Assembly: GCA_037389465.1 (NCBI GenBank)
Contig: JAZARR010000231.1
Coordinates: forward strand, 2,790,001 to 2,854,000
From: Baylisascaris procyonis
Taxonomy: Eukaryota; Nematoda; Chromadorea; Rhabditida; Ascarididae
Reading direction: 5' to 3'
Length of the DNA: 64,000 nucleotides
The notes beneath the pieces are model-generated. The model was not told the origin of the DNA. It was given only the letters and a program-made list of their open reading frames with translations, and ran no database searches. The position numbers and the translations under genes were made by a program. Numbering within the stretch: position 1 is the first letter of the stretch; each line of letters opens with the position of its first letter. Positions 1,379-64,000 of this stretch are shown here, piece by piece.

Positions 1379-1379
1379 T

Positions 1380-1487: not shown

Positions 1488-1522
1488 AAGATGAATAGCG
1501 TTAAACTCCTATGCATTTTCAG

Positions 1523-6173: not shown

Positions 6174-6240
6174 TTACGCCTAGACCTAGGCTTAAGGTTA
6201 GGCTTAGGGGGGTAGGCTTAGGCTTAGGCTTAATCTAAGC
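6174..6240 (+). repeat. Irregular junction of unique DNA and array
   Basis: The first hexamers are scrambled: TTACGC, CTAGAC, CTAGGC, TTAAGG, TTAGGC, then a run of six G and TAGGC. Regular repeat starts only after about 6210. Such degeneration is usual at the inner edge of a telomere, where exchange with distal repeats is rare. Confidence 0.7.
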
Positions 6241-8330
6241 TTAGGCTTAGGCTTAGGCATAAACTTAGGCTTAGGCTTAAACTTAGGCTTAGGCTTAGGC
6301 TTAGGCTTAGGCTTAGGCTTAAACTTAGGCTTAGGCTTAAACTTAGGCTCAGGCTTAAACTTAGGCTCAGGCTTAAACTTAGGCTTAGGTTTAAACTTAG
6401 GCTCAAACTTAGGCCTGGGCTTAGGCTTAGGCTTAGGCTCAAACTTAGGCTTAGGCTTACGCTCAAACTTAGGCTTAGGCTTAAACTTAGGCTCAGGCAC
6501 AAACTTAGGCTTAGGCTTAAACTTAGGCTTAGGTTTAAACTTAGGCTTAGGCTTGGGCTTAGGCTTAGTCGAAGCTTAGGCTTAGGCTTAGGCTTAGGCT
6601 TAGGCTTAGGCTTAGGCTTAGGCTTAGGCTTAGCCTTAGGCTTAGGCTTAAACTTAGGCTTAGCCTTAGGCCTAGGCTTAAACTTAGGCTTAAACTTAGG
6701 CTTAGGCTTAGGCTTAAGCTTAGCCTAAGCTTAAGCTTAAGGCTTAAACGTAGGCTTAAACTTAGGCTTAGGCTTAGGCTTAGGCTTAGGCTTAGGCTTA
6801 GGCTTAGGCTTAGGCTTAGGCTTAGGGTTAGGCTTAGGCTTAGGCTTAGGCTTAAACTTATTCTTAAACTTATTCTTAAACTTAGGCTTGGGCTTAGGCT
6901 TGGGCTTAGGCTTAGGCTTAGGCTTAGGCTTAGGCTTAGGCTTAGGCTTAGGCTTAGGCTTAGGCATAGGCTTAGGCTTAGGCTTAGGCTTAGGCTTAGG
7001 CTTAGGCTTAGGCTTAGGCTTAGGCTTAGGCTTAGGCTTAGGCTTAGGCTTAGGCTTAGGCTTAGGCTTAGGCTTAGGCTTAGGCTTAGGCTTAGGCTTA
7101 GGCTTATTCTTAAACTTAGGCTTAGGCTTAGGCTTAGGCTTAAACTTAGTCTTAGGCTTAGGCTTAGGCATAAACTTAGGCTTAGGCTTAAACTTAGGCT
7201 TAGGCTTAGGCTTAGGCTTAGGCTTAGGCTTAAACTTAGGCTTAGGCTTAAACTTAGGCTCAGGCTTAAACTTAGGCTCAGGTTTAAACTTAGGCTTAGG
7301 TTTAAACTTAGGCTCAAACTTAGGCCTGGGCTTAGGCTTAGGCTTAGGCTCAAACTTAGGCTTAGGCTTAGGCTCAAACTTAGGCTTAGGCTTAAACTTA
7401 GGCTCAGGCACAAACTTAGGCTTAGGCTTAAACTTAGGCTTAGGTTTAAATTTAGGCTTAGGCTTGGGCTTAGGCTTAGTCGAAGCTTAGGCTTAGGCTT
7501 AGGCTTAGGCTTAGGCTTAGGCTTAGGCTTAGGCTTAGCCTTAGGCTTAGGCTTAGGCTTAAACTTAGGCTTAGCCTTAGGCCTAGGCTTAAACTTAGGC
7601 TTAAACTTAGGCTTAGGCTTAGGCTTAGGCTTAGCCTAAGCTTAAGCTTAAGGCTTAAACGTAGGCTTAAACTTAGGCTTAGGCTTAGGCTTAGGCTTAG
7701 GCTTAGGCTTAGGCTTAGGCTTAGGCTTAGGCTTAGGCTTAGGCTTAGGCTTAGGCTTAGGCTTAGGCTTATTCTTAAACTTAGGCTTAGGCTTAGGCTT
7801 AGGCTTAAACTTAGTCTTAGGCTTAGGCTTAGGCATAAACTTAGGCTTAGGCTTAAACTTAGGCTTAGGCTTAGGCTTAGGCTTAGGCTTAGGCTTGAAC
7901 TTAGGCTTAGGCTTAAACTTAGGCTCAGGCTTAAACTTAGGCTCAGGCTTAAACTTAGGCTTAGGTTTAAACTTAGGCTCAAACTTAGGCCTGGGCTTAG
8001 GCTTAGGCTTAGGCTCAAACTTAGGCTTAGGCTTAGGCTCAAACTTAGGCTTAGGCTTAAACTTAGGCTCAGGCACAAACTTAGGCTTAGGCTTAAACTT
8101 AGGCTTAGGTTTAAACTTAGGCTTAGGCTTGGGCTTAGGCTTAGTCGAAGCTTAGGCTTAGGCTTAGGCTTAGGCTTAGGCTTAGGCTTAGGCTTAGGCT
8201 TAGGCTTAGCCTTAGGCTTAGGCTTAAACTTAGGCTTAGCCTTAGGCCTAGGCTTAAACTTAGGCTTAAACTTAGGCTTAGGCTTAGGCTTAGGCTTAGC
8301 CTAAGCTTAAGCTTAAGGCTTAAGCTTAAG
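6184..8330 (+). repeat. Innermost block: three units marked by GTCGAAGC
   Basis: The marker GTCGAAGC occurs at 6568, 7479 and 8144, giving spacings of 911 and 665 bp. Each copy is preceded by the same string of TTAAAC, TCAGGC and GGCCTGGGC variants and followed by CCTAAGCTTAAGCTTAAGGC (near 6724, 7635 and 8300). The 246 bp length difference lies mainly in the TTAGGC-rich part, so copies differ by loss or gain of whole repeats. The context CTTGGGCTTAGGCTTAGTCG mirrors the TTAGTCTAAGC cassette of the distal 315 bp units. Confidence 0.85.
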
Positions 8331-11300
8331 GCTTAAACGTAGGCTTAAACTTAGGCTTAGGCTTAGGCTTAGGCTTAGGCTTAGGCTTAGGCTTAGGCTT
8401 AGGCTTAGGCTTAGGCTTAGGCTTAGGCTTAGGCTTAGGGTTAGGCTTAGGCTTAGGCTTAGGCTTAAACTTATTCTTAAACTTATTCTTAAACTTAGGC
8501 TTGGGCTTAGGCTTGGGCTTAGGCTTAGGCTTAGGCTTAGGCTTAGGCTTAGGCTTAGGCTTAGGCTTAGGCTTAGGCTTAGGCTTAGGCTTAGGCTTAG
8601 GCTTAGGCTTAGGCATAGGCTTAGGCATAGGCTTAGGCTTAGGCTTAGGCTTAGGCTCAGGCTTAGGCTTAGGCTTAGGCTTAGGCTTAGGCTTAGGCTT
8701 AGGCTTATTCTTAAACTTAGGCTTAGGCTTAGGCTTAGGCTTAGGCTTAGGCTTAGGCTTAGGCTTAGGCTTAGGCTTAGGCTTAGGCTTAGGCTTAGGC
8801 TTAGGCTTATTCTTAAACTTACGCTTAGGCTTAGGCTTAGGCTTAAACTTAGTCTTAGGCTTAAACTTAGGCTTAGGCTTAGGCTTAGGCTTAGGCTTAG
8901 GCTTAGGCTTAGGCTTAGGCTTAGGCTTAGGCTTATTCTTAAACTTAGGCTTAGGCTTAGGCTTAGGCTTAGGCTTAGGCTTAGGCTTAGGCTTAGGCTT
9001 AGGCTTAGGCTTAGGCTTAGGCTTAGGCTTAGGCTTAGGCTTATTCTTAAACTTAGGCTTAGGCTTAGGCTTAGGCTTAAACTTAGTCTTAGGCTTAAAC
9101 TTAGGCTTAGGCTTGGGCTTAGGCTTAGGCTTAGGCTTAGGCTTAGGCTTAGGCTTAGGCTTAGGCTTATTCTTAAACTTAGGCTTAGGCTTAGGCTTAG
9201 GCTTAGGCTTAGGCTTATTCTTAAACTTAGGCTTAGGCTTAGGCCTAGGCTTAGGCCTAGGCTTAGGCTTAGGCTTAGGCTTAGGCTTAGGCTTAGGCTT
9301 AGGCTTAGGCTTAGGCTTAAACTTATTCTTAAACTTATTCTTAAACTTAGGCTTGGGCTTAGGCTTGGGCTTAGGCTTAGGCTTAGGCTTAGGCTTAGGC
9401 TTAGGCTTAGGCTTAGGCTCAGGCTTAGGCTTAGGCTTAGGCTTAGGCTTAGGCTTAGGCTTAGGCTTAGCCTTAGGCTTAGGCTTAGGCTTAGGCTTAG
9501 GCTTAGGCTTATTCTTAAACTTAGGCTTAGGTTTAGGCTTAGGCTTAGGCTTAGGCTTAGGCTTAGGCTTAGGCTTAGGCTTAGGCTTATTCTTAAACTT
9601 AGGCTTAGGCTTAGGCCTAGGCCTAGGCTTAGGCTTAGGCTTAGGCTTAGGCTTAGGCTTAGGCTTAGGCTTAGGCTTAGGCTTAGGCTTAGGCTTAGGC
9701 TTAGGCTTATGCTTAGGCTTAGGCTTAGGCTTAGGCTTAGGCTTAGGCTTAAGCTTAGGCTTAGGCTTAGGCTTAGGCTTAGGCTTAAACTTATTCTTAA
9801 ACTTATTCTTAAACTTAGGCTTGGGCTTAGGCTTGGGCTTAGGCTTAGGCTTGGGCTTAGGCTTAGGCTTAGGCTTAGGCTTAAACTTATTCTTAAACTT
9901 ATTCTTAAACTTAGGCTTGGGCTTAGGCTTGGGCTTAGGCTTAGGCTTAGGCTTAGGCTTATTCTTAAACTTAGGCTTAGGCTTAGGCTTAGGCTTATTC
10001 TTAAACTTAGGCTTAGGCTTAGGCTTAGGCTTAGGCTTAGGCTTAGGCTTGGGCTTAGGCTTAGGCTTAGGCTTAGGCTTAGGCTTAGGCTTAGGCTTAA
10101 ACTTAGGCTTAGGCTTAGGCTTAGGCTTAGGCTTATTCTTAAACTTAGGCTTACGCTTAAACTTATTCTTAAACTTAGGCTTGGGCTTAGGCTTGGGCTT
10201 AGGCTTAGGCTTATGCTTAGGCTAAGGCTTAGGCTTAGGCTTAGGCTTAGGCTTAGGCTTAGGCTTAGGCTTAGGCTTAGGCTTAGGCTTAGGCTTAGGC
10301 TTAGGCTTAGGCTTAGGCTTATTCTTAAACTTAGGCTTAGGTTTAGGCTTAGGCTTAGGCTTAGGCTTAGGCTTAGGCTTAGGCTTAGGCTTAGGCTTAT
10401 TCTTAAACTTAGGCTTAGGCTTAGGCTTAGGCTTAGGCTTATCCTTAAACTTAGGCTTAGGCTTAGGCCTAGGCTTAGGCTTAGGCTTAGGCTTAGGCTT
10501 AGGCTTAGGCTTAGGCTTACGCTTAAACTTATTCTTAAACTTAGGCTTGGGCTTAGGCTTGGGCTTAGGCTTAGGCTTAGGCTTAGGCTTAGGCTTAGGC
10601 TAAGGGTTAGGCTTAGGCTTAGGCTTAGGCTTAGGCTTAGGCTTAGGCTTAGGCTTAGGCTTAGGGCTTAGGCTTAGGCTTAGGCTTAGGCTTAGGCTTA
10701 GGCTTAGGCTTAGGCTTAGGCTTAGGCTTAGGCTTAGGCTTAGGCTTAGGCTTATTCTTAAACTTAGGCTTAGGCTTAGGCTTAGGCTTAGGCTTAGGCT
10801 TAGGCTTAGGCTTAGGCTTAGGCTTATTCTTAAACTTAGGCTTAGGCTTAGGCTTAGGCTTAGGCTTAGGCTTAGGCTTGGGCTTGGGCTTAGGCTTAGG
10901 CTTAGGCTTAGGCTTAGGCTTAGGCTTAGGCTTAGGCTTAGGCTTAGGCTTATTCTTAAACCTACGCTTAGGCTTAGGCTTAGGCTTAGGCTTAGGCTTA
11001 GGCTTGGGATTAAGCTTAGGCTTAGGCTTAGGCTTAGGCTTAGGCTTAGGCTTAGGCTTAGGCTTAGGCTTAGGCTTAGGCTTAGGCTTAGGCTTAGGCT
11101 TAGGCTTAGGCTTAGGCTTAAGCTTAGGCTTAGGCTTAGGCTTAGGCTTAGGCTTAGGCTTATTCTTAAACTTAGGCTTAGGTTTAGGCTTAGGCTTAGG
11201 CTTAGGCTTAGGCTTAGGCTTAGGCTTAGGCTTAGGCTTATTCTTAAACTTAGGCTTAGGCTTAGGCCTAGGCCTAGGCTTAGGCTTAGGCTTAGGCTTA

Positions 11301-14300
11301 GGCTTAGGCTTAGGCTTAGGCTTAGGGTTAGGCTTATGCTTAGGCTTAGGCTTAGGCTTAGGCTTAGGCTTAGGCTTAGGCTTAGGCTTAGGCTTAGGCT
11401 TAAACTTATTCTTAAACTTATTCTTAAACTTAGGCTTGGGCTTAGGCTTGGGCTTAGGCTTAGGCTTGGGCTTAGGCTTAGGCTTAGGCTTAGGCTTAGG
11501 CTTAGGCTTAGGCTTATTCTTAAACTTAGGCTTAGGCTTAGGCTTAGGCTTAGGCTTATTCTTAAAGTTAGGCTTAGGCTTAGGCTTAGGCTTAGGCTTG
11601 GGCTTAGGCTTAGGCTTAGGCTTAGGCTTAGGCTTAGGCTTAGGCTTAAACTTAGGCTTAGGCTTAGGCTTAGGCTTAGGCTTATTCTTAAACTTAGGCT
11701 TACGCTTAAACTTATTCTTAAACTTATGCTTGGGCTTAGGCTTGGGCTTAGGCTTAGGCTTATGCTTATGCTAAGGCTTAGGCTTAGGCTTGGGCTTAGG
11801 CTTAGGCTTAGGCTTAGGGCTTAGGCTTAGGCTTAGGCTTAGGCTTAGGCTTAGGCTTAGGCTTAGGCTTAGGCTTAGGCTTATTCTTAAACTTAGGCTT
11901 AGGCTTAGGCTTAGGCTTAGGCTTAGGCTTAGGCTTATCCTTAAACTTAGGCTTAGGCTTAGGCCTAGGCTTAGGCTTAGGTTTAGGCTTAGGCTTAGGC
12001 TTAGGCTTAGGCTTAGGCTTAGGCTTAGGCTTAGGCTTAGGCTTAGGCTAAGGCTTAGGCTTAGGCTTAGGCTTAGGCTTAGGCTTAGGCTTAGGCTTAG
12101 GCTTAGGCTTAGGCTTAGGCTTAGGGTTAGGCTTAGGCTTAAACTTATTCTTAAACTTAGGCTTGCGCTTAGGCTTGGGCTTAGGCTTAGGCTTAGGCAT
12201 AGGCTTAGGCTTAGGCTAAGGCTTAGGCTTAGGCTTAGGCTTAGGCTTAGGCTTAGGCTTAGGCTTAGGCTTAGGCTTAGGCTTAGGCTTAGGCTTAGGC
12301 TTAGGCTTAGGCTTAGGCTTAGGCTTAGGCTTAGGCTTAGGCTTAGGCTTAGGCTTAGGCTTAGGCTTAGGCTTAGGCTTAGGCTTAGGCTTAGGCTTAG
12401 GCTTAGGCTTAGGCTTATTCTTAAACTTAGGCTTAGGCTTAGGCTTAGGCTTAGGCTTAGGCTTAGGCTTAGGCTTAGGCTTAGGCTTAGGCTTATTCTT
12501 AAACTTAGGCTTAGGCTTAGGCTTAGGCTTAGGCTTAGGCTTAGGCTTAGGCTTAGGCTTGGGCTTAGGCTTAGGCTTAGGCTTAGGCTTAGGCTTAGGC
12601 TTAGGCTTAGGCTTAGGCTTAGGCTTAGGCTTAAACTTAGGCTTATGCTTAGGCTTAGGCTTAGCCTTAGGCTTATTCTTAAACTTAGGCTTAGGCTTAG
12701 GCTTAGGCTTAGGCTTAGGCTTAGGCTAAGGCTTAGGCTTAGGCTTAGGCTTAGGCTTAGGCTTATGCTTAGGCTTAGGCTTAGGCTTAGGCTTAGGCTT
12801 AGGCTTAAACTTATTCTTAAACTTAGGCTTGGGTTTAGGCTTGGGCTTAGGCTTAGGCTTAGGCTTAGGCTTAGGCTTAGGCTTAGGCTTAGGCTTAGGC
12901 TTAGGCTTAGGCTTAGGCTTAGGCTTAGGCTTAGGCTTAGGCTTAGGCTTAGGCTTAGGCTTAGGCTTAGGCTCAGGCTTAGGCTTAGGCTTAGGCTTAG
13001 GCTTAGGCTTAGGCTTAGGCTTAGGCTTAGGCTTAGGCTTAGGCTTAGGCTTAGGCTTAGGCTTAGGCTTAGGCTTAGGCTTAGGCTTAGGCTTATTCTT
13101 AAACTTAGGCTTAGGCTTGGGCTTAGGCTTATTCTTAAACTTAGGCTTAGGCTTAGGCTTATTCTTAAACTTAGGCTTAGGCTTAGGCTTAGGCTTAGGC
13201 TTAGGCTTAGGCTTGGGCTTAGGCTTAGGCTTAGGCTTAGGCTTAGGCTTATTCTTAAACTTAGGCTTAGGCTTGGGCTTAGGCTTAGGCTTAGGCTTAG
13301 GCTTAGGCTTAGGCTTAGGCTTAGGCTTAGGCTTAGGCCTAGCGCTTAGGCTTAGGCTTAGGCTTAGGCTTAGGCTTAGGCTTAGGCTTAGGCTTAGGCT
13401 TAGGCTTAGGCTTATTCTTAAACTTAGGCTTAGGCTTAGGCTTAGGCTTAGGCTTAGGCTTAGGCTTATTCTTAAACTTAGGCTTAGGCTTAGGCTTAGG
13501 CTTAGGCTTAGGCTTAGGCTTAGGCTTAGGGCTTAGGCTTAGGCTTAGCCTTAGGCTTAGGCTTAGGCTTAGGCTTAAACCTACGCTTAAACTTATACTT
13601 AGGCTTAGGCTTAGGCTTAGGCTTGGGCTTAGGCCTAAACTTAGGCTTATGCTTAGGCTTGGGCTTAGGCTTAGGCCTAAACTTAGGCTTATGCTTAAAC
13701 TTAGGCTTAGGCTTAGGCTTAGGGCTTAGGCTTAGGCTTAGGCTTAGGCTTAGGCTTAGGCTTAGGCTTAGGTTTAGGCTTAGGCTTAGGCTTAGGCTTA
13801 GGCTTAGCCTTATTCTTAAACTTAGGCTTAGGCTTAGGCTTAGGCTTAGGCTTAGGCTTAGGCTTAGGCTTAGGCTTATTCTTAAACTTAGGCTTAGGCT
13901 TAGGCTTAGGCTTAGGCTTAGGCTTAGGCTTATTCTTAAACTTAGGCTTAGGCTTGGGCTTAGGCTTATTCTTAAACTTAGGCTTAGGCTTAGGCTTATT
14001 CTTAAACTTAGGCTTAGGCTTAGGCTTAGGCTTAGGCTTAGGCTTAGGCTTGGGCTTAGGCTTAGGCTTAGGCTTAGGCTAAGGCTTAGGCTTAGGCTTA
14101 GGCTTAGGCTTAGGCTTAGGCTTAGGCTTAAACTTAGGCTTAGGCTTAGGCTTAGGCTTAAACTTAGGCTTAGGCTTAGGCTTAAACCTACGCTTAAACT
14201 TATACTTAGGCTTAGGCTTAGGCTTAGGCTTGGGCTTAGGCCTAAACTTAGGCTTATGCTTAGGCTTGGGCTTAGGCTTAGGCATAAACTTAGGCTTATG

Positions 14301-15540
14301 CTTAAACTTAGCTTAGGCTTAGGCTTAAACTTACGCTTAAACTTAGGCTTAGGCTTAGGCTTAGGCTTATTCTTAAACTTAGGCTTAGGCTTAGGCTTAT
14401 TCTTAAACTTAGGCTTAGGCTTAGGCTTAGGCTTAGGCTTAGGCTTAGGCTTGGGCTTAGGCTTAGGCTTAGGCTAAGGCTTAGGCTTAGGCTTAGGCTT
14501 AGGCTTAGGCTTAGGCTTAGGCTTAGGCTTAGGCTTAGGCTTAGGCTTAGGCTTAGGCTTAGGCTTAGGCTTAGGCTTAGGCTTAGGCTTAGCTTAGGCT
14601 TAGGCTTAGGCTTAGGCTTAGGCTTAGGCTTAGCGCTTAGGCTTAGGCTTAGGCTTAGGCTTAGGCTTAGGCTTAGGCTTAGGCTTAGGCTTAGGCTTAA
14701 GCTTAGGCTTAGGCTTAGGCTTAGGCTTAGGCTCATTCTTAAACTTAGGCTTAGGCTTAGGCTTAGGCTTAGGCTTATTCTTAAACTTAGGCTTAGGCTT
14801 AGGCTTAGGCTTAGGCTTAGGCTTAGGCTTAGGCTTGGGCTTAGGCTTAGGGCTTAGGCTTAGGCTTAGCCTTAGGCTTAGGCTTAAACTTAGGCTTGGG
14901 CTTAGGCTTAGGCCTAAACTTAGGCTTATGCTTAAACTTAGGCTTAGGCTTAGGCTTAGGGCTTAGGCTTAGGCTTAGGCTTAGGCTTAGGCTTAGGCTT
15001 ATTCTTAAACTTAGGCTTAGGCTTAGGCTTAGGCTTAGGCTTAGGCTTAGGCTTAGGCTTATTCTTAAACTTAGGCTTAGGCTTAGGCTTAGGCTTAGGC
15101 TTAGGCTTAGGCTTATTCTTAAACTTAGGCTTAGGCTTAGGCTTAGGCTTAGGCTGAGGCTTAGGCTTATTCTTAAACTTAGGCTTAGGCTTAGGCTTAG
15201 GCTTAGGCTTAGGCTTAGGCTTAGGCTTAGGCTTATTCTTAAACTTAGGCTTAGGTTTGGGCTTAGGCTTAGGCTTAGGCTTAGGCTTAGGCTTAGGCTA
15301 AGGCTTAGGCTTAGGCTTAGGCTTAGGCTTAGGCTTAGGCTTAGGCTTAGGCTTAAACTTAGGCTTAGGCTTAGGCTTGGCTTAAACTTAGGCTTAGGCT
15401 TAGGCTTAAACCTACGCTTAAACTTATACTTAGGCTTAGGCTTAGGCTTAGGCTTGGGCTTAGGCCTAAACTTAGGCTTATGCTTAGGCTTGGGCTTAGG
15501 CTTAGGCCTAAACTTAGGCTTATGCTTAAACTTAGCTTAG
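8331..15540 (+). repeat. Block rich in TTATTC-TTAAAC dimers
   Basis: Long TTAGGC runs alternate with TTATTC-TTAAAC dimers and with a longer string TTAAAC-TTATTC-TTAAAC-TTATTC-TTAAAC (for example 9307-9347, 9787-9815 and 11401-11430) that is usually followed by two TTGGGC hexamers. Internal copying is visible: the pattern from 9709 recurs from 11336, an offset of 1,627 bp. Related strings reappear near 19.8-22.4 kb and 44.3-46.7 kb. Confidence 0.75.
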
Positions 15541-15637
15541 GCTTAGGCTTAAACTTACGCTTAAACTTAGGCTTAGGCTTAGGCTTAAACTTAGGCTTAG
15601 GTCCAAACTTAGGCTCATTCTTGGGCTTAGGCTTAGT

Positions 15638-15665
15638 CTAAGCTTATGCATAGGCCTAGGCTTAG
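15638..15665. repeat. Near-palindromic cassette (first of 33 copies)
   Basis: A 28 bp element starting CTAAGCTTATGCAT and ending AGGCCTAGGCTTAG matches its own reverse complement at 22 of 28 positions. It contains the six-base palindromes AAGCTT, ATGCAT, AGGCCT and CCTAGG. Copies with their ATG at single sites are 15646, 24256, 32606, 40168, 48666, 53860 and 55581. The rest lie in the 315 bp arrays and at 62560 and 62930. The last three single copies read ATGGAT and lose ATGCAT. Confidence 0.85.
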
Positions 15666-17744
15666 GCTTAAACTTAGACTTAAACATAGGCTTAGGCTTA
15701 AACTTAGGCTTAGGCTTAGGCTTAAACTTAGGCTTAGCCTTAAGCTTAGGCTTAGGCTTAGGCTTAGGCTTAGGCTTAGGCTTAGGCTTAGGCTTATTCT
15801 TAAACTTAGGCTTAGGCTTAGGCTTAGGCTTAGGCTTAGGCTTAGGCTTATTCTTAAACTTAGGCTTAGGCTTAGGCTTAGGCTTAGGCTTAGGGCTTAG
15901 GCTTAGGCTTAGCCTTAGGCTTAGGCTTAAACTTAGGCATAGGCTTAGGCTTAGGCTTAAACTTAGGCTTAGGCTTAGGCTTAAACCTACGCTTAAACTT
16001 ATACTTAGGCTTAGGCTTAGGCTTAGGCTTGGGCTTAGGCCTAAACTTAGGCTTATGCTTAGGCTTGGGCTTAGGCTTAGGCCTAAACTTAGGCTTATGC
16101 TTAAACTTAGGCTTAGGCTTAGGCTTAGGCTTAGGCTTAGGCTTAGGCTTAGGCTTAGGCTTAGGCTTAGGCTTAGGCTTATTCTTAAACTTAGGCTTAG
16201 GCTTAGGCTTAGGCTTAGGCTTAGGCTTAGGCTTAGGCTTAGGCTTATTCTTAAACTTAGGCTTAGACTTAGGCTTAGGCTTAGGCTTAGGCTTAGGCTT
16301 AGGCTTAGGCTTAGGCTCAGGCTTAGGCTTAGGCTTAGGCTTAGGCTTATTCTTAAACTTAGGCTTAGGCTTGGGCTTAGGCTTATTCTTAAACTTAGGC
16401 TTAGGCTTAGGCTTATTCTTAAACTTAGGCTTAGGCTTAGGCTTAGGCTTAGGCTTGGGCTTAGGCTTAGGCTTAGGCTTAGGCTAAGGCTTAGGCTTAG
16501 GCTTAGGCTTAGGCTTAGGCTTAGGCTCAGGCTTAGGCTTAAACTTAGGCTCAGGCTTAGGCTTAGGCTTAAACTTAGGCTTAGGCTTAAACCTACGCTT
16601 AAACTTATACTTAGGCTTAGGCTTGGGCTTAGGCCTAAACTTAGGCTTATGCTTAGGCTTGGGCTTAGGCTTAGGCCTAAACTTAGGCTTATGCTTAAAC
16701 TTAGCTTAGGCTTAGGCTTAAACTTACGCTTAAACTTAGGCTTAGGCTTAGGCTTAGGCTTAGGCTTAGGCTTAGGCTTAGGGCTTAGGCTTAGGCTTAG
16801 CCTTAGGCTTAGGCTTAAACTTAGGCTTAGGCTTAGGCTTAGGCTTAAACTTAGGCTTAGGCTTAGGCTTAAACCTACGCTTAAACTTATACTTAGGCTT
16901 AGGCTTAGGCTTAGGCTTGGGCTTAGGCCTAAACTTAGGCTTATGCTTAGGCTTGGGCTTAGGCTTAGGCCTAAACTTAGGCTTATGCTTAAACTTAGGC
17001 TTAGGCTTAGGCTTAGGCTTAGGCTTAGGCTTAGGCTTAGGCTTAGGCTTAGGCTTAGGCTTAGGCTTAGGCTTAGGCTTAGGCTTAGGCTTATTCTTAA
17101 ACTTAGGCTTAGGCTTAGGCTTAGGCTTAGGCTTAGGCTTAGGCTTAGGCTTAGGCTTATTCTTAAACTTAGGCTTAGACTTAGGCTTAGGCTTAGGCTT
17201 AGGCTTAGGCTTAGGCTTAGGCTTAGGCTCAGGCTTAGGCTTAGGCTTAGGCTTAGGCTTATTCTTAAACTTAGGCTTAGGCTTGGGCTTAGGCTTATTC
17301 TTAAACTTAGGCTTAGGCTTAGGCTTATTCTTATACTTAGGCTTAGGCTTAGGCTTAGGCTTAGGCTTGGGCTTAGGCTTAGGCTTAGGCTTAGGCTAAG
17401 GCTTAGGCTTAGGCTTAGGCTTAGGCTTAGGCTTAGGCTCAGGCTTAGGCTTAAACTTAGGCTTAGGCTTAGGCTTAGGCTTAAACTTAGGCTTAGGCTT
17501 AGGCTTAAACCTACGCTTAAACTTATACTTAGGCTTAGGCTTAGGCTTAGGCTTGGGCTTAGGCCTAAACTTAGGCTTATGCTTAGGCTTGGGCTTAGGC
17601 TTAGGCCTAAACTTAGGCTTATGCTTAAACTTAGCTTAGGCTTAGGCTTAAACTTACGCTTAAACTTAGGCTTAGGCTTAGGCTTAAACTTAGGGTTAGG
17701 TCCAAACTTAGGCTCATTCTTGGCCTTAGGCTTAGTCTAAGCTT

Positions 17745-24600: not shown

Positions 24601-24650
24601 GCTTAAACCTACGCTTAAACTTATACTTAGGCTTAGGCTTAGACTTAGGC

Positions 24651-34700: not shown

Positions 34701-34727
34701 TCTTGGCCTTAGGCTTAGTCTAAGCTT

Positions 34728-42200: not shown

Positions 42201-42289
42201 ACGCTTAAACTTAGGCTTAGGCTTAGGCTTAAACTTAGGGTTAGGTCCAAACTTAGGCTCATTCTTGGCCTTAGGCTTAGTCTAAGCTT

Positions 42290-53859: not shown

Positions 53860-56800
53860 ATGGATAGGCCTAGGCTTAGGCTTAAACTTAGAATTAAACA
53901 TAGGCTTAGGCTTAAACTTAGGCTTAGGCTTAGGCTTAAACTTAGGCTTAGCCTTAAGCTTAGGCTTAGGCTTAGGCTTAGGCTTGGGCTTAGGCTTAGG
54001 CTTAGGCTTATTCTTAAACTTAGGCTTAGGCTTAGGCTTAGGCTTAGGCTTAGGCTTAGGCTTATTCTTAAACTTAGGCTTAGGCTTAGGCTTAGGCTTA
54101 GGCTTATGCTTAGGCTTAGGCTTAGGCTTAGGCTTAGCCTTAGGCTTAGGCTTAAACTTAGGCTTAGGCTTAGGCTTAGGCTTAAACTTAGGCGTAGGCT
54201 TAGGCTTAAACCTACGCTTAAACTTATACTTAGGCTTAGGCTTAGACTTAGGCTTGGGCTTAGGCCTAAACTTAGGCTTATGCTTAGGCTTGGGCTTAGG
54301 CTTAGGCCTAAACTTAGGCTTATGCTTAAACTTAGGCTTAGGCTTAGGCTTAGGCTTAGGCTTAGGCTTAGGCTTAGGCTTAGGCTTAGGCTTAGGCTTA
54401 GGCTTAGGCTTAGGCTTATTCTTAAACTTAGGCTTAGGCTTAGGCTTAGGCTTAGGCTTAGGCTTAGGCTTAGGCTTAGGCTTATTCTTAAACTTAGGCT
54501 TAGACTTAGGCTTAGGCTTAGGCTTAGGCTTAGGCTTAGGCTTAGGCTTAGGCTCAGGCTTAGGCTTAGGCTTAGGCTTAGGCTTATTCTTAAACTTAGG
54601 CTTAGGCTTGGGCTTAGGCTTATTCTTAAACTTAGGCTTAGGCTTAGGCTTATTCTTAAACTTAGGCTTAGGCTTAGGCTTAGGCTTAGGCTTGGGCTTA
54701 GGCTTAGGCTTAGGCTTAGGCTAAGGCTTAGGCTTAGGCTTAGGCTTAGGCTTAGGCTTAGGCTCAGGCTTAGGCTTAAACTTAGGCTCAGGCTTAGGCT
54801 TAGGCTTAAACTTAGGCTTAGGCTTAGGCTTAAACCTACGCTTAAACTTATACTTAGGCTTAGGCTTAGGCTTAGGCTTGGGCTTAGGCCTAAACTTAGG
54901 CTTATGCTTAGGCTTGGGCTTAGGCTTAGGCCTAAACTTAGGCTTATGCTTAAACTTAGGCTTAGGCTTAGGCTTAGGGCTTAGGCTTAGGCTTAGGCTT
55001 AGGCTTAGGCTTAGGCTTAGGCTTAGGCTTAGGCTTAGGCTTAGGCTTATTCTTAAACTTAGGCTTAGGCTTAGGCTTAGGCTTAGGCTGAGGCTTAGGC
55101 TTATTCTTAAACTTAGGCTTAGGCTTAGGCTTAGGCTTAGGCTTAGGCTTAGGCTTAGGCTTAGGCTTATTCTTAAACTTAGGCTTAGGTTTGGGCTTAG
55201 GCTTAGGCTTAGGCTTAGGCTTAGGCTTAGGCTAAGGCTTAGGCTTAGGCTTAGGCTTAGGCTTAGGCTTAGGCTTAGGCTTAGGCTTAAACTTAGGCTT
55301 AGGCTTAGGCTTAGGCTTAAACTTAGGCTTAGGCTTAGGCTTAAACCTACGCTTAAACTTATACTTAGGCTTAGGCTTAGGCTTAGGCTTGGGCTTAGGC
55401 CTAAACTTAGGCTTATGCTTAGGCTTGGGCTTAGGCTTAGGCCTAAACTTAGGCTTATGCTTAAACTTAGCTTAGGCTTAGGCTTAAACTTACGCTTAAA
55501 CTTAGGCTTAGGCTTAGGCTTAAACTTAGGCTTAGGTCCAAGCTTAGGCTCATTCTTGGGCTTAGGCTTAGTCTAAGCTTATGGATAGGCCTAGGCTTAG
55601 GCTTAAACTTAGAATTAAACATAGGCTTAGGCTTAAACTTAGGCTTAGGCTTAGGCTTAAACTTAGGCTTAGCCTTAAGCTTAGGCTTAGGCTTAGGCTT
55701 AGGCTTGGGCTTAGGCTTAGGCTTAGGCTTATTCTTAAACTTAGGCTTAGGCTTAGGCTTAGGCTTAGGCTTAGGCTTAGGCTTATTCTTAAACTTAGGC
55801 TTAGGCTTAGGCTTAGGCTTAGGCTTATGCTTAGGCTTAGGGCTTAGGCTTAGGCTTAGCCTTAGGCTTAGGCTTAAACTTAGGCTTAGGCTTAGGCTTA
55901 GGCTTAAACTTAGGCTTAGGCTTAGGCTTAAACCTACGCTTAAACTTATACTTAGGCTTAGGCTTAGACTTAGGCTTGGGCTTAGGCCTAAACTTAGGCT
56001 TATGCTTAGGCTTGGGCTTAGGCTTAGGCCTAAACTTAGGCTTATGCTTAAACTTAGGCTTAGGCTTAGGCTTAGGGCTTAGGCTTAGGCTTAGGCTTAG
56101 GCTTAGGCTTAGGCTTAGGCTTAGGCTTAGGCTTAGGCTTATTCTTAAACTTAGGCTTAGGCTTAGGCTTAGGCTTAGGCTTAGGCTTAGGCTTAGGCTT
56201 AGGCTTATTCTTAAACTTAGGCTTAGACTTAGGCTTAGGCTTAGGCTTAGGCTTAGGCTTAGGCTTAGGCTTAGGCTCAGGCTTAGGCTTAGGCTTAGGC
56301 TTAGGCTTATTCTTAAACTTAGGCTTAGGCTTGGGCTTAGGCTTATTCTTAAACTTAGGCTTAGGCTTAGGCTTATTCTTAAACTTAGGCTTAGGCTTAG
56401 GCTTAGGCTTAGGCTTGGGCTTAGGCTTAGGCTTAGGCTTAGGCTAAGGCTTAGGCTTAGGCTTAGGCTTAGGCTTAGGCTTAGGCTCAGGCTTAGGCTT
56501 AAACTTAGGCTCAGGCTTAGGCTTAGGCTTAAACTTAGGCTTAGGCTTAGGCTTAAACCTACGCTTAAACTTATACTTAGGCTTAGGCTTAGGCTTAGGC
56601 TTGGGCTTAGGCCTAAACTTAGGCTTATGCTTAGGCTTGGGCTTAGGCTTAGGCCTAAACTTAGGCTTATGCTTAAACTTAGCTTAGGCTTAGGCTTAAA
56701 CTTACGCTTAAACTTAGGCTTAGGCTTAGGCTTAGGCTTAGGCTTAGGCTTAGGCTTAGGGCTTAGGCTTAGGCTTAGCCTTAGGCTTAGGCTTAAACTT

Positions 56801-57300
56801 AGGCTTAGGCTTAGGCTTAGGCTTAAACTTAGGCTTAGGCTTAGGCTTAAACCTACGCTTAAACTTATACTTAGGCTTAGGCTTAGGCTTAGGCTTAGGC
56901 TCAGGCTTAGGCTTAAACTTAGGCTCAGGCTTAGGCTTAGGCTTAAACTTAGGCTTAGGCTTAGGCTTAAACCTACGCTTAAACTTATACTTAGGCTTAG
57001 GCTTAGGCTTAGGCTTGGGCTTAGGCCTAAACTTAGGCTTATGCTTAGGCTTGGGCTTAGGCTTAGGCCTAAACTTAGGCTTATGCTTAAACTTAGCTTA
57101 GGCTTAGGCTTAAACTTACGCTTAAACTTAGGCTTAGGCTTAGGCTTAGGCTTAGGCTTAGGCTTAGGCTTAGGGCTTAGGCTTAGGCTTAGCCTTAGGC
57201 TTAGGCTTAAACTTAGGCTTAGGCTTAGGCTTAGGCTTAAACTTAGGCTTAGGCTTAGGCTTAAACCTACGCTTAAACTTATACTTAGGCTTAGGCTTAG
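53860..57300 (+). repeat. ~1.72 kb tandem duplication
   Basis: The ATGGAT cassette at 53860 recurs at 55581, and the TTAGGCTTAGACTTAGGCTT site at about 54,240 recurs about 1,722 bp later. The second copy carries the same private cassette changes. The block then continues into units matching 26.9-31.8 kb. Confidence 0.75.
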
Positions 57301-60300
57301 GCTTAGGCTTGGGCTTAGGCCTAAACTTAGGCTTATGCTTAGGCTTGGGCTTAGGCTTAGGCCTAAACTTAGGCTTATGCTTAAACTTAGGCTTAGGCTT
57401 AGGCTTAGGGCTTAGGCTTAGGCTTAGGCTTAGGCTTAGGCTTAGGCTTAGGCTTAGGCTTAGGCTTAGGCTTAGGCTTAGGCTTATTCTTAAACTTAGG
57501 CTTAGGCTTAGGCTTAGGCTTAGGCTTAGGCTTAGGCTTAGGCTTAGGCTTATTCTTAAACTTAGGCTTAGACTTAGGCTTAGGCTTAGGCTTAGGCTTA
57601 GGCTTAGGCTTAGGCTTAGGCTTAGGCTCAGGCTTAGGCTTAGGCTTAGGCTTAGGCTTATTCTTAAACTTAGGCTTAGGCTTGGGCTTAGGCTTATTCT
57701 TAAACTTAGGCTTAGGCTTAGGCTTATTCTTAAACTTAGGCTTAGGCTTAGGCTTAGGCTTAGGCTTGGGCTTAGGCTTAGGCTTAGGCTTAGGCTAAGG
57801 CTTAGGCTTAGGCTTAGGCTTAGGCTTAGGCTTAAACTTAGGCTTAGGCTTAGGCTTAAACCTACGCTTAAACTTATACTTAGGCTTAGGCTTAGGCTTA
57901 GGCTTAGGCTCAGGCTTAGGCTTAAACTTAGGCTCAGGCTTAGGCTTAGGCTTAAACTTAGGCTTAGGCTTAGGCTTAAACCTACGCTTAAACTTATACT
58001 TAGGCTTAGGCTTAGGCTTAGGCTTGGGCTTAGGCCTAAACTTAGGCTTATGCTTAGGCTTGGGCTTAGGCTTAGGCCTAAACTTAGGCTTATGCTTAAA
58101 CTTAGCTTAGGCTTAGGCTTAAACTTACGCTTAAACTTAGGCTTAGGCTTAGGCTTAGGCTTAGGCTTAGGCTTAGGCTTAGGGCTTAGGCTTAGGCTTA
58201 GCCTTAGGCTTAGGCTTAAACTTAGGCTTAGGCTTAGGCTTAGGCTTAAACTTAGGCTTAGGCTTAGGCTTAAACCTACGCTTAAACTTATACTTAGGCT
58301 TAGGCTTAGGCTTAGGCTTGGGCTTAGGCCTAAACTTAGGCTTATGCTTAGGCTTGGGCTTAGGCTTAGGCCTAAACTTAGGCTTATGCTTAAACTTAGG
58401 CTTAGGCTTAGGCTTAGGCTTAGGCTTAGGCTTAGGCTTAGGCTTAGGCTTAGGCTTAGGCTTAGGCTTAGGCTTAGGCTTAGGCTTAGGCTTATTCTTA
58501 AACTTAGGCTTAGGCTTAGGCTTAGGCTTAGGCTTAGGCTTAGGCTTAGGCTTAGGCTTATTCTTAAACTTAGGCTTAGACTTAGGCTTAGGCTTAGGCT
58601 TAGGCTTAGGCTTAGGCTTAGGCTTAGGCTCAGGCTTAGGCTTAGGCTTAGGCTTAGGCTTATTCTTAAACTTAGGCTTAGGCTTGGGCTTAGGCTTATT
58701 CTTAAACTTAGGCTTAGGCTTAGGCTTATTCTTAAACTTAGGCTTAGGCTTAGGCTTAGGCTTAGGCTTGGGCTTAGGCTTAGGCTTAGGCTTAGGCTAA
58801 GGCTTAGGCTTAGGCTTAGGCTTAGGCTTAGGCTTAGGCTCAGGCTTAGGCTTAAACTTAGGCTTAGGCTTAGGCTTAGGCTTAAACTTAGGCTTAGGCT
58901 TAGGCTTAAACCTACGCTTAAACTTATACTTAGGCTTAGGCTTAGGCTTAGGCTTGGGCTTAGGCCTAAACTTAGGCTTATGCTTAGGCTTGGGCTTAGG
59001 CTTAGGCCTAAACTTAGGCTTATGCTTAAACTTAGCTTAGGCTTAGGCTTAAACTTACGCTTAAACTTAGGCTTAGGCTTAGGCTTAAACTTAGGGTTAG
59101 GTCCAAACTTAGGCTCATTCTTGGCCTTAGGCTTAGTCTAAGCTTATGCATAGGCCTAGGCTTAGGCTTAAACTTAGACTTAAACATAGCTTAGGCTTAA
59201 ACTTAGGCTTAGGCTTAGGCTTAAACTTAGGCTTAGCCTTAAGCTTAGGCTTAGGCTTAGGCTTAGGCTTGGGCTTAGGCCTAAACTTAGGCTTATGCTT
59301 AGGCTTGGGCTTAGGCTTAGGCCTAAACTTAGGCTTATGCTTAAACTTAGCTTAGGCTTAGGCTTAAACTTACGCTTAAACTTAGGCTTAGGCTTAGGCT
59401 TCAACTTAGGCTTAGGTCCAAACTTAGGCTCATTCTTGGGCTTAGGCTTAGTCTAAGCTTATGCATAGGCCTAGGCTTAGGCTTAAACTTAGACTTAAAC
59501 ATAGCTTAGGCTTAAACTTAGGCTTAGGCTTAGGCTTAAACCTACGCTTAAACTTATACTTAGGCTTAGGCTTAGGCTTAGGCTTGGGCTTAGGCCTAAA
59601 CTTAGGCTTATGCTTAGGCTTGGGCTTAGGCTTAGGCCTAAACTTAGGCTTATGCTTAAACTTAGCTTAGGCTTAGGCTTAAACTTACGCTTAAACTTAG
59701 GCTTAGGCTTAGGCTTAAACTTAGGCTTAGGTCCAAACTTAGGCTCATTCTTGGGCTTAGGCTTAGTCTAAGCTTATGCATAGGCCTAGGCTTAGGCTTA
59801 AACTTAGACTTAAACATAGGCTTAGGCTTAAACTTAGGCTTAGGCTTAGGCTTAAACTTAGGCTTAGCCTTAAGCTTAGGCTTAGGCTTAGGCTTAGGCT
59901 TGGGCTTAGGCCTAAACTTAGGCTTATGCTTAGGCTTGGGCTTAGGCTTAGGCCTAAACTTAGGCTTATGCTTAAACTTAGCTTAGGCTTAGGCTTAAAC
60001 TTACGCTTAAACTTAGGCTTAGGCTTAGGCTTCAACTTAGGCTTAGGTCCAAACTTAGGCTCATTCTTGGGCTTAGGCTTAGTCTAAGCTTATGCATAGG
60101 CCTAGGCTTAGGCTTAAACTTAGACTTAAACATAGCTTAGGCTTAAACTTAGGCTTAGGCTTAGGCTTAAACCTACGCTTATACTTATACTTAGGCTTAG
60201 GCTTAGGCTTAGGCTTGGGCTTAGGCCTAAACTTAGGCTTATGCTTAGGCTTGGGCTTAGGCTTAGGCCTAAACTTAGGCTTATGCTTAAACTTAGCTTA

Positions 60301-60813
60301 GGCTTAGGCTTAAACTTACGCTTAAACTTAGGCTTAGGCTTAGGCTTAAACTTAGGCTTAGGTCCAAACTTAGGCTCATTCTTGGGCTTAGGCTTAGTCT
60401 AAGCTTATGCATAGGCCTAGGCTTAGGCTTAAACTTAGACTTAAACATAGGCTTAGGCTTAAACTTAGGCTTAGGCTTAGGCTTAAACTTAGGCTTAGCC
60501 TTAAGCTTAGGCTTAGGCTTAGGCTTAGGCTTAGGCTTAGGCTTAGGCTTAGGCTTATTCTTAAACTTAGGCTTAGGCTTAGGCTTAGGCTTAGGCTTAG
60601 GCTTAGGCTTATTCTTAAACTTAGGCTTAGGCTTAGGCTTAGGCTTAGGCTTAGGCTTAGGCTTAGGCTTAGGCTTAGGCTTAGGCTTAGGCTTAGCCTT
60701 AGGCTTAGGCTTAAACTTAGGCTTAGGCTTAGGCTTAGGCTTAAACTTAGGCTTAGGCTTAGGCTTAAACCTACGCTTAAACTTATACTTAGGCTTAGGC
60801 TTAGGCTTAGGCT
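56000..60813 (+). repeat. Copy of the ~27-31.8 kb segment
   Basis: Anchors 30129, 30444, 30759, 31075, 31390 and 31796 recur exactly 29,017 bp later at 59146, 59461, 59776, 60092, 60407 and 60813. Anchors 29300 and 26949 recur at offsets 29,018 and 29,027. The near-constant offset implies a recent event. The patterns part after 60,813. Confidence 0.87.
59146..60721 (+). repeat. 315 bp unit array 6 (five starts)
   Basis: Cassette starts at 59146, 59461, 59776, 60092 and 60407, spacings 315, 315, 316 and 315 bp. The fourth unit reads TTATAC where array 2 has TTACAC. Confidence 0.92.
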
Positions 60814-62559
60814 TGGGCTTAGGCCTAAACTTAGGCTTATGCTTAGGCTTGGGCTTAGGCTTAGGCCTAAACTTAGGCTTATGCTTAAACTTAGGCTTAG
60901 GCTTAGGCTTAGGGCTTAGGCTTAGGCTTAGGCTTAGGCTTAGGCTTAGGCTTATTCTTAAACTTAGGCTTAGGCTTAGGCTTAGGCTTAGGCTTAGGCT
61001 TAGGCTTAGGCTTAGGCTTAGGCTTAGGCTTAGGCTTAGGCTTAGGCTTATTCTTAAACTTAGGCTTAGACTTAGGCTTAGGCTTAGGCTTAGGCTTAGG
61101 CTTAGGCTTAGGCTTAGGCTCAGGCTTAGGCTTAGGCTTAGGCTTAGGCTTAGGCTTAGGCTTATTCTTAAACTTAGGCTTAGGCTTGGGCTTAGGCTTA
61201 TTCTTAAACTTAGGCTTAGGCTTAGGCTTATTCTTAAACTTAGGCTTAGGCTTAGGCTTAGGCTTAGGCTTGGGCTTAGGCTTAGGCTTAGGCTTAGGCT
61301 AAGGCTTAGGCTTAGGTTTAGGCTTAGGCTTAGGCTTAGGCTCAGGCTTAGGCTTAAACTTAGGCTTAGGCTTAGGCTTAGGCTTAAACTTAGGCTTAGG
61401 CTTAGGCTTAAACCTACGCTTAAACTTATACTTAGGCTTAGGCTTAGGCTTAGGCTTGGGCTTAGGCCTAAACTTAGGCTTATGCTTAGGCTTGGGCTTA
61501 GGCTTAGGCCTAAACTTAGGCTTATGCTTAAACTTAGCTTAGGCTTAGGCTTAAACTTACGCTTAAACTTAGGCTTAGGCTTAGGCTTAGGCTTAGGCTT
61601 AGGCTTAGGCTTAGGGCTTAGGCTTAGGCTTAGCCTTAGGCTTAGGCTTAAACTTAGGCTTAGGCTTAGGCTTAGGCTTAAACTTAGGCTTAGGCTTAGG
61701 CTTAAACCTACGCTTAAACTTATACTTAGGCTTAGGCTTAGGCTTAGGCTTGGGCTTAGGCCTAAACTTAGGCTTATGCTTAGGCTTGGGCTTAGGCTTA
61801 GGCCTGAACTTAGGCTTATGCTTAAACTTAGGCTTAGGCTTAGGCTTAGGCTTAGGCTTAGGCTTAGGCTTAGGCTTAGGCTTAGGCTTAGGCTTAGGCT
61901 TAGGCTTAGGCTTATTCTTAAACTTAGGCTTAGGCTTAGGCTTAGGCTTAGGCTTAGGCTTAGGCTTAGGCTTAGGCTTATTCTTAAACTTAGGCTTAGA
62001 CTTAGGCTTAGGCTTAGGCTTAGGCTTAGGCTTAGGCTTAGGCTCAGGCTTAGGCTTAGGCTTAGGCTTAGGCTTATTCTTAAACTTAGGCTTAGGCTTG
62101 GGCTTAGGCTTATTCTTAAACTTAGGCTTAGGCTTAGGCTTATTCTTAAAATTAGGCTTAGGCTTAGGCTTAGGCTTAGGCTTGGGCTTAGGCTTAGGCT
62201 TAGGCTTAGGCTAAGGCTTAGGCTTAGGCTTAGGCTTAGGCTTAGGCTTAGGCTCAGGCTTAGGCTTAAACTTAGGCTTAGGCTTAGGCTTAGGCTTAAA
62301 CTTAGGTTTAGGCTTAGGCTTAAACCTACGCTTAAACTTATACTTAGGCTTAGGCTTAGGCTTAGGCTTGGGCTTAGGCCTAAACTTAGGCTTATGCTTA
62401 GGCTTGGGCTTAGGCTTAGGCCTAAACTTAGGCTTATGCTTAAACTTAGCTTAGGCTTAGGCTTAAACTTACGCTTAAACTTAGGCTTAGGCTTAGGCTT
62501 AAACTTAGGGTTAGGTCCAAACTTAGGCTCATTCTTGGGCTTAGGCTTAGTCTAAGCTT
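60813..62559 (+). repeat. Two units of about 0.9 kb
   Basis: The anchor TTGGGCTTAGGCCTAAAC starts at 60813 and 61750, a spacing of 937 bp. Comparable 0.89-0.94 kb spacings occur at 16029/16917, 18757/19699, 32994/33900, 35741/36665 and 40557/41462, which defines the second level of the hierarchy. Confidence 0.75.
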
Positions 62560-62929
62560 ATGCATAGACCTAGGCTTAGGCTTAAACTTAGACTTAAACA
62601 TAGCTTAGGCTTAAACTTAGGCTTAGGCTTAGGCTTAAACTTAGGCTTAGCCTTAAGCTTAGGCTTAGGTTCAAACTTTGGCTTAGGCTTGGGCTTAGGC
62701 TTAGGCTTAGGCTTAGCCTTAGGCTTAGGATTAAGCTTAAACTTAGGCTTAAACTTAGGCATAGCCTTTGGCTTAGGCTTAAACTTAGGCTTAAACATAG
62801 GCTTAGGCTTAAACTTAGGCATAGGCTTAGGCTTAAACTTAGGCTTAAACTTAGGCTTGGGCTTAGGCTTAAACTTAGGCTTAGGTCCAAACTTGGGCTC
62901 ATTCTTGGGCTTATCCTTAGTCTAAGCTT
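62560..62929 (+). repeat. Most divergent cassette unit (370 bp)
   Basis: Cassette starts at 62560 and 62930 flank a unit of 370 bp rather than 315 bp. It has many variants rare elsewhere: GGTTCAAACTTTGGC, GGATTAAGC, repeated GGCATAGGC, CCTTTGGC, CTTGGGCTCATTC and TTATCC before TTAGTCTAAGC. The first cassette reads ATAGACCTAGG instead of ATAGGCCTAGG. Confidence 0.8.
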
Positions 62930-64000
62930 ATGCATAGGCCTAGGCTTAGGCTTAAACTTAGACTTAAACATAGGCTTAGGCTTAAACTTAGGCTTAGGCT
63001 TAGGCTTAAACTTAGGCTTAGCCTTAAGCTTAGGCTTAGGCTTAGGCTTAGGCTTAGGCTTAGGCTTAGGCTTAGGCTTATTCTTAAACTTAGGCTTAGG
63101 CTTAGGCTTAGGCTTAGGCTTAGGCTTAGGCTTATTCTTAAACTTAGGCTTAGGCTTAGGCTTAGGCTTAGGCTTAGGCTTAGGCTTAGGCTTAGGGCTT
63201 AGGCTTAGGCTTAGCCTTAGGCTTGGGCTTAAACTTAGGCTTAGGCTTAGGCTTAGGCTTAAACTTAGGCTTAGGCTTAGGCTTAAACCTACGCTTAAAC
63301 TTATACTTAGGCTTAGGCTTAGGCTTAGGCTTGGGCTTAGGCCTAAACTTAGGCTTATGCTTAGGCTTGGGCTTAGGCTTAGGCCTAAACTTAGGCTTAT
63401 GCTTAAACTTAGGCTTAGGCTTAGGCTTAGGCTTAGGCTTAGGCTTAGGCTTAGGCTTAGGCTTAGGCTTAGGCTTAGGCTTAGGCTTATTCTTAAACTT
63501 AGGCTTAGGCTTAGGCTTAGGCTTAGGCTTAGGCTTAGGCTTAGGCTTAGGCTTATTCTTAAACTTAGGCTTAGACTTAGGCTTAGGCTTAGGCTTAGGC
63601 TTAGGCTTAGGCTTAGGCTTAGGCTCAGGCTTAGGCTTAGGCTTAGGCTTAGGCTTATTCTTAAACTTAGGCTTAGGCTTGGGCTTAGGCTTATTCTTAA
63701 ACTTAGGCTTAGGCTTAGGCTTATTCTTAAACTTAGGCTTAGGCTTAGGCTTAGGCTTAGGCTTGGGCTTAGGCTTAGGCTTAGGCTTAGGCTAAGGCTT
63801 AGGCTTAGGCTTAGGCTTAGACTTAGGCTTAGGCTCAGGCTTAGGCTTAAACTTAGGCTTAGGCTTAGGCTTAGGCTTAAACTTAGGCTTAGGCTTAGGC
63901 TTAAACCTACGCTTAAACTTATACTTAGGCTTAGGCTTAGGCTTAGGCTTGGGCTTAGGCCTAAACTTAGGCTTATGCTTAGGCTTGGGCTTAGGCTTAG

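What the first reader, a model, noticed from the sequence alone, without database searches (positions are those of the whole stretch)
6174..64000. A telomere-type array of at least 57.8 kb built as a multi-level higher-order repeat
The sequence shows only TTAGGC-family hexamers in one orientation, organised at levels of 6 bp, 12 bp, 315 bp, ~0.9 kb, ~1.7-2.3 kb, 5.2 kb, 7.56 kb and 9 kb. Telomeres in well-studied nematodes are a few kilobases of mostly pure TTAGGC. Higher-order repeat of this depth is known from centromeric satellites, not from telomere repeat. It may be a distinct class of chromosome-end structure, an internal relic array, or a structural element such as a heterochromatic knob.
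Basis: partly seen in the sequence, partly recalled or inferred. Interest (0 to 1): 0.9.

Follow-up and report, generated by a model that had tools for sequence, protein, structure and literature searches.

The report
Buried telomere repeat grown into satellite
In a roundworm that looks related to Ascaris, a 60-kilobase block of telomere-like repeat lies half a megabase inside a contig, not at its end, and has been rebuilt by repeated local duplication; most similar blocks located elsewhere point toward the nearer end of their contig, as buried old chromosome ends would.

Summary
The array is real: one orientation, TTAGGC-type, strongly repeated at larger scales (144 of 284 sampled 315-bp windows have a perfect non-overlapping copy; 0 of 284 in each of 12 nulls). 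It starts at 6174 and fades out about 1.95 kb past the window, so it is about 59.8 kb. It is not a chromosome end: the contig continues 528 kb and ends in a separate, nearly pure telomere, under 5 kb as assembled. It is an interstitial telomeric array. The higher order is a mosaic of nested, often two-copy duplications; the 7.56-kb pair has 1 mismatch in 7,559 aligned bases. It is not a regular centromere-type HOR. A marker 36-mer occurs only here (80 of 80). Arrays on C170, C195 and C198, read in part, have other variants. Of 11 loci with resolvable position, 9 point to the nearer contig end; 6 of 6 within 2 Mb of a telomere read on the same contig point to it. A small sister array and flank copies show an old local tandem duplication. 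Best reading: an internalised telomere-type seed amplified by unequal exchange. Known kind (ITS), new variant. Whether arrays mark ancient ends or DNA-elimination boundaries is open.

The parts
6174..64000 (+). Interstitial TTAGGC-type array, G-strand reading to the right; continues about 1,950 bases past the window (to C229 about 2,855,950)
6174..9000 (+). More diverged left edge (best ungapped 315-bp copy often 86-95%, with a local 911-bp duplication reaching 99%)
13564..63925 (+). Span holding 80 copies of a private 36-base marker (TAGGCTTAGGCTTAAACCTACGCTTAAACTTATACT); 80 of 80 genome-wide hits lie here
17528..18104 (+). One of nine listed pockets with exact copies 315 bp apart (others: 29912-30488, 30872-31119, 34511-35087, 37474-38050, 38434-38681, 42073-42649, 58929-59505, 59875-60136)
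29499..37060 (+). First copy of a 7.56-kb tandem duplication
   Evidence: 7,558 matches, 1 mismatch, 5 gaps totalling 49 columns
37061..44665 (+). Second copy of the 7.56-kb tandem duplication
44769..48926 (+). First copy of a second, about 5.2-kb tandem duplication (exact runs of 1,361 and 1,351 bases; end points approximate)
49936..54120 (+). Second copy of the 5.2-kb duplication (end points approximate)
5485..6142 (+). Flank segment F1, ending 31 bases before the array; diverged copy (71-74%) at C229 2,861,230-2,862,232, right of the array
1..1371 (.). Right part of a separate AT-rich satellite (C229 2,780,906-2,791,371) that switches strand near C229 2,789,899
   Evidence: window 1-1400 read

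Best explanation
This is a large interstitial telomeric sequence (ITS). A telomere-type seed came to lie inside the chromosome with its G-strand pointing to the nearer end. The likeliest source is an old chromosome end later overgrown by distal DNA; insertion at a healed break is the alternative. The seed then behaved as an ordinary satellite: point mutation gave variants (TTAAAC, TTGGGC, TTATTC and others), and unequal exchange, slippage or gene conversion copied blocks of variant hexamers, giving 315-bp pockets, 0.9-2.3-kb blocks and recent 5.2- and 7.56-kb tandem duplications, with homogenised core and diverged edges. The locus also went through an older tandem duplication that left a 3.3-kb sister array 20 kb to the left. 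SHOWN by sequence (as assembled): interstitial position, single orientation, nested near-identical copies, diverged edges, private marker, duplicated flanks. INFERRED: the amplification mechanism, the buried-telomere origin (about 0.5), and absence of present telomere function. The elimination-boundary and TALT-like readings below are not exclusive of this one.
For: Contig continues 528 kb and ends in a separate telomere: 41 TTAGGC in the last 250 bases, none in a 48-base sample 5 kb inward. Terminal repeat read at C8 (1.57 kb) is 98.5% TTAGGC, against 67% of six-base units here. Core windows have perfect copies at distances of about 2-45 kb; edges are lower, the last 20 windows averaging 0.83. 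Null tests. Marker private to the array, 80 of 80; the C195 array has its own marker, 18 of 18; 0 shared informative 36-mers among five arrays compared (C195, C170 and C198 read only in part). Right-edge sequence J was found only twice in the genome, beside the two C229 arrays (91% and 81%), and flank F1 has one diverged copy, on C229. Outward orientation: 9 of 11 loci point to the nearer contig end; 6 of 6 within 2 Mb of a telomere read on the same contig point to it (ends).
Against: No reads and no second assembly: false duplication of the 7.56-kb block is possible, since its copies differ by one mismatch and a few gaps. Assembled telomeres may be cut short. Orientation counts are small and come from three variant patterns, one with its list cut at 100 of 175 places; loci on C69, C70, C80, C88 and C211 were located by exact pattern hits and not read (C88 by a single hit). 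Two loci (C80, C195) do not fit the outward rule. Several contig ends near arrays are not telomeric in my samples (C69, C70 and C198 left, C177 right), so the contig end is not always a chromosome end. About 370 kb of C229 between 3,014,000 and the end were not read apart from small samples. Outward repeats alone do not prove a former end.
Confidence: 0.72

Rival explanations
1. Programmed-elimination boundary: in this ascarid-like worm the arrays sit where somatic cells break the chromosome; an outward-pointing telomere seed would cap the retained fragment and the distal part would be germline-only.
For: [quoted passage not shown] Most located arrays lie toward contig ends and point outward.
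Against: Ascaris break regions are reported to share no common motif. No coverage, embryo or soma/germline data here. A TBL1-like exon (a housekeeping-type gene by recall) lies about 6 kb distal to the array; a germline-only segment would delete it from the soma unless another copy exists.
Confidence: 0.1
2. TALT-like template: a block of ordinary DNA between two telomere-type tracts of the same orientation, made by recombination-based (ALT) repair of chromosome ends, as in Caenorhabditis elegans.
For: Architecture matches: small array, about 19-kb block, main array, same orientation; C. elegans TALT1 is unique sequence flanked by two same-orientation ITS (PMC4595603, passages seen; PMC9066243, whole text read).
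Against: The edge segment J was found only twice genome-wide, both internal; none at a chromosome end. A partial telomerase-domain hit suggests telomerase is present.
Confidence: 0.12
3. Assembly artefact: a short interstitial or terminal array expanded, or joined to unrelated sequence, by the assembler.
For: Near-identical 7.56-kb and 5.2-kb copies are the kind of repeat that assemblers duplicate or collapse. C150 ends inside such an array, and on C147 and C155 the last hits lie within 3-11 kb of the contig end.
Against: Both edges decay gradually into flanks; flank copies J and F tie the array to both sides of one locus; the private marker argues against mixing with other arrays.
Confidence: 0.08
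4. Carried by a transposable element that spreads telomere repeats.
For: The same sequence J follows both C229 arrays.
Against: No third copy of J was found; the duplication also includes flank F.
Confidence: 0.02

Closest known systems
Large heterochromatic interstitial telomeric sequences (het-ITS) of vertebrates, e.g. Chinese hamster
   Same: Large internal blocks of telomere-type repeat, sometimes longer than genuine telomeres, proposed to amplify by unequal crossing-over, conversion, slippage or rolling circle (PMC6410037, passages seen)
   Different: Those lie mainly in (peri)centromeric regions; here arm positions in a nematode (Ascaris chromosomes are holocentric, PMC8065839, passage seen), mostly toward contig ends; chromatin state unknown
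Subtelomeric ITS (yeast, human)
   Same: Blocks of degenerate telomere-like repeat inside the chromosome near its end (PMC6410037, passage seen)
   Different: Size and higher-order organisation of those were not shown in the passage; here about 60 kb, 528 kb from the contig end
Higher-order repeats of variant telomere units at Arabidopsis thaliana chromosome ends
   Same: Variant telomere units organised into higher-order repeats by local homogenisation (PMC11406999, abstract and passages seen)
   Different: Those adjoin the terminal telomere and the examples shown are blocks of a few units; here interstitial, with copied blocks up to 7.56 kb
TALT / new subtelomere arrays of C. elegans
   Same: DNA block flanked by same-orientation TTAGGC tracts; units duplicated by recombination (PMC9066243 whole text; PMC4595603 passages)
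   Different: TALT units are copied to chromosome ends; no terminal copy of J found here
Alpha-satellite-type higher-order repeats (human centromeres)
   Same: Nested repeats with large units more alike than neighbouring monomers (recalled; search listing only)
   Different: No single HOR unit tiles this array; mosaic of two- to few-copy duplications

Membership tests
Functional terminal telomere | Lies at the chromosome end | tested here: not met
   528 kb of further contig, then a separate telomere
Functional terminal telomere | Nearly pure telomerase-made repeat | tested here: not met
   67% TTAGGC units here against 98.5% in 1.57 kb at the C8 end
Interstitial telomeric sequence (ITS) | Telomere-type tandem repeat at a non-terminal site | tested here: met
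Heterochromatic ITS (het-ITS) | Large block, longer than the telomere | tested here: met
   About 59.8 kb against under 5 kb, as assembled, at the same contig's end
Heterochromatic ITS (het-ITS) | Lies in (peri)centromeric heterochromatin | not testable with these tools
   No cytology or chromatin data
Fusion ITS | Head-to-head junction of two telomeres | tested here: not met
   GCCTAAGCCTAA 0 times in the array
Higher-order-repeat satellite | Large copies more alike than chance arrangement of the same units gives | tested here: met
Higher-order-repeat satellite | One HOR unit repeated head to tail through the array | tested here: not met
   Mosaic of many spacings
TALT (template for ALT) | DNA block flanked by two ITS of one orientation | tested here: met
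TALT (template for ALT) | Copies of the block at chromosome ends | tested here: inconclusive
   J found twice, both internal, F1 only on C229; the rest of the block was not searched genome-wide
Programmed-DNA-elimination break region | Somatic telomere addition at the site | not testable with these tools
   No reads or soma/germline pair

The most novel reading that the evidence does not exclude
Chromosome arms of this worm may each carry a private telomere-derived higher-order array, set some 0.05-1.8 Mb from the end and pointing outward.
Probability: 0.1. Interest if true: 0.85.

Novelty: new variant of a known kind. Interest (0 to 1): 0.5.

Why it matters
ITS are described as found in most vertebrates and some plants (PMC6410037, passage), and C. 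elegans has 1,229 degenerate ITS tracts (PMC9071541, passage). Here one very large ITS of an ascarid-like worm can be read base by base, with traces of its turnover and siblings on other contigs. If the outward orientation holds, it gives a testable link to chromosome-end history in the nematode family where programmed DNA elimination was discovered (PMC13370393, passage).

Tried and rejected
Whole-array autocorrelation was uninformative beyond short distances, probably because small indels break register; replaced by k-mer and ungapped-window tests. BLAST of array windows timed out. A mobile-element carrier was considered after two arrays proved to share an edge sequence; dropped after (two copies found). 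A chromosome-fusion scar was rejected for lack of a head-to-head junction. Open frames across the arrays (e.g. 313 aa LRLRLR...) are by-products of a repeat with few stops and not genes. Parascaris identity was considered through its TTGCA pentamer satellite (recalled): 101 hits of a 30-mer (42 + 59), not decisive. Rfam on the window: no match. Two neighbouring open frames: no Pfam match. Species not settled: SDHB exons are 151 of 159 identical to PDB 3vr8_B (Ascaris suum by recall), against at most 89% among the best 120 proteins listed from the large protein search, which show no Ascaris entry by name.

Full report
Position. The window is C229:2,790,001-2,854,000 of a 272.8-Mb, 293-contig genome; C229 is 3,384,475 bp. 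TTAGGC is absent from window 1-6,000 and dense from 6,174 on. In the adjoining locus L010 it fades out near window coordinate 65,950; scripts took 6174-66030 as the array. It is thus about 59.8 kb. The next 158 kb (to C229 3,014,000) hold no further array by count; the remaining 370 kb were not read apart from small samples. The last 250 bases of C229 hold 41 TTAGGC in the outward direction, while a 48-base sample 5 kb inward is unrelated. The contig end is a short separate telomere, as assembled, 528 kb away.

Composition. 9,867 of 10,035 units are six bases long; 6,613 are TTAGGC, 1,076 TTAAAC, then TTGGGC, TTATTC, TTATGC. The C8 end is 98.5% TTAGGC (1.57 kb read) and a sample 10 kb inward is unrelated. 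No inverted telomere tract occurs in the array.

Higher order. Spacings between successive copies of informative 60-mers peak at 315, 631, 294, 1216, 630 and 5194; among all pairs 7562 leads. For 315-bp windows stepped by 105, 489 of 568 have a non-overlapping ungapped copy of 95% or more, against 0 of 142 sampled in a unit shuffle. With more controls, sampled every 210 bases, 248 of 284 real windows reach 95% and 144 of 284 are perfect; three unit shuffles and nine Markov chains of order 1-3 give 0-35 and 0. Longest exact repeat: 3,362 against 143-274 bases in four nulls. The raw count of repeated 60-mers alone does not separate the array from the order-2 and order-3 nulls. The core is homogenised, the edges diverged, as unequal exchange predicts. 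The 7.56-kb level is one tandem duplication (7,558 matches, 1 mismatch, 5 gaps of 49 columns in all); the 5.2-kb level is another (4,158 matches, 0 mismatches, 5 gaps of 1,031 columns in all; my end points were approximate). So the structure is a mosaic and not one HOR unit tiled through the array.

Local history. A second array of about 3.3 kb, same orientation, lies at C229 about 2,773,200-2,776,500. Both arrays are followed on the right by the same segment J (91% over the first 253 bases, 81% farther on), found nowhere else by the genome search (that search scores only best candidates and skips very common words). The 0.66 kb just left of the main array (F1) has a diverged copy (71-74%) about 5 kb right of it. 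The order array-J-F1-array-J-F2 indicates an old tandem duplication with one break at the array's left edge. An exon matching TBL1XR1 (E 1e-11) lies about 6 kb right of the array.

Genome-wide. (TTAGGC)4 has 108,209 forward and 192,439 reverse hits, telomeres included; 2,691 are in this array. Three variant patterns located other arrays. TTAAAC-type: 19 hits, 13 on C229 and 6 on C170, C195 and C198. TTAAGC-type: 175 hits, 100 listed, on C69, C70, C80, C147, C153, C155, C170 and C177. TTGGGC-type: 19 hits on C70, C88 and C211. Parts of the C195, C170 and C198 arrays were read and small samples bound them: C170 about 21-26 kb, C195 about 26-40 kb, C198 3-25 kb. Markers are private: 80 of 80 and, for C195, 18 of 18. 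Five arrays compared share no informative 36-mer; only the two on C229 were read whole.

Orientation. Left out: C153 (103-kb contig whose hit spacing matches C155, so probably the same locus) and C147, C150 and C155 (array at or near the contig end). Of the other 11 loci, 9 point to the nearer contig end: C69, C70 twice, C88, C170, C177, C198, C211, C229; against: C80, C195. On C147, C150 and C155 the array points to the other end, which is a telomere (3 of 3). One-sided sign tests: 0.033 (9 of 11) and 0.0065 (12 of 14); 6 of 6 gives 1 in 64. The loci are a pattern-found sample and partly unread, so this is suggestive and no more.

Contig ends sampled. Outward repeat: C8 both, C78 both, C110 both (left end interrupted), C82, C88, C89, C147, C150, C155, C177 and C211 left, C170, C186, C195 and C229 right. 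Not telomeric: C69, C70, C80, C169, C170, C186, C195, C198, C228 and C229 left, C89, C177, C198 and C228 right. C150 right carries inward repeat. None of 18 contigs under 250 kb sampled at the first base, nor C153, was telomeric, nor were the right ends of four of the 18.

Organism. A nematode close to ascarids: SDHB exons 151 of 159 identical to PDB 3vr8_B (Ascaris suum by recall). GC of 180 kb sampled outside the arrays is 34%. One partial telomerase RNA-binding-domain hit exists (C89, E 3.6e-4, positions 91-129 of 133). Species not settled.

Literature. For each paper the call and the extent seen are given where it is cited. Searches for TTAGGC with higher-order, interstitial, satellite/elimination and Ascaris/internal telomere, for Parascaris/germline chromosome, and for ascarid/interstitial listed no paper whose title or abstract start describes a large higher-order interstitial TTAGGC array; the library is open-access only, so this is no proof of absence. 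Simmons et al. 2024 on Parascaris chromosomes is recalled and was not seen.

Verdict. The array is an interstitial telomere-derived satellite, a new variant of a known kind. The outward orientation of its siblings is the part worth following.

Noticed in passing
C229 2,780,906-2,791,371 (L026 and window 1-1371): AT-rich degenerate satellite about 10.5 kb long that flips strand near 2,789,899, left of the array.
   Followed up: partly
C229 2,975,354-2,979,367 (L022): Long tandem repeat open on the minus strand (PYHAPSHFLVMLALLSCDRYLPIFPLF repeated); probably another satellite.
   Followed up: no
C150 1,830,001-1,849,146: 1.85-Mb contig with a telomere at the left and, at its right end, repeat in the orientation that is wrong for a telomere; a sample 19 kb inward is also array, so it seems to stop inside an interstitial array.
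   Followed up: partly
C153 71,113-88,160 and C155 571,114-594,741: Near-identical spacing of telomere-variant hits (1,708/11,111 against 1,711/11,121) suggests two haplotype copies of one array in the assembly.
   Followed up: no
C195 left end (L091): Contig begins in sequence that looks like 5S rRNA by eye (recall), so probably broken in a 5S array.
   Followed up: no
C186 774,596-779,300 and C89 1,945,508-1,945,802: Small stretches of the pentamer TTGCA, a Parascaris germline satellite unit by recall.
   Followed up: no
L010 8330-8480 (minus strand): Exon matching TBL1XR1 about 6 kb right of the array.
   Followed up: yes
C8, C78, C110: Contigs of 3.4-5.8 Mb with outward telomere repeat at both ends: apparently complete small chromosomes, possibly somatic forms.
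   Followed up: partly
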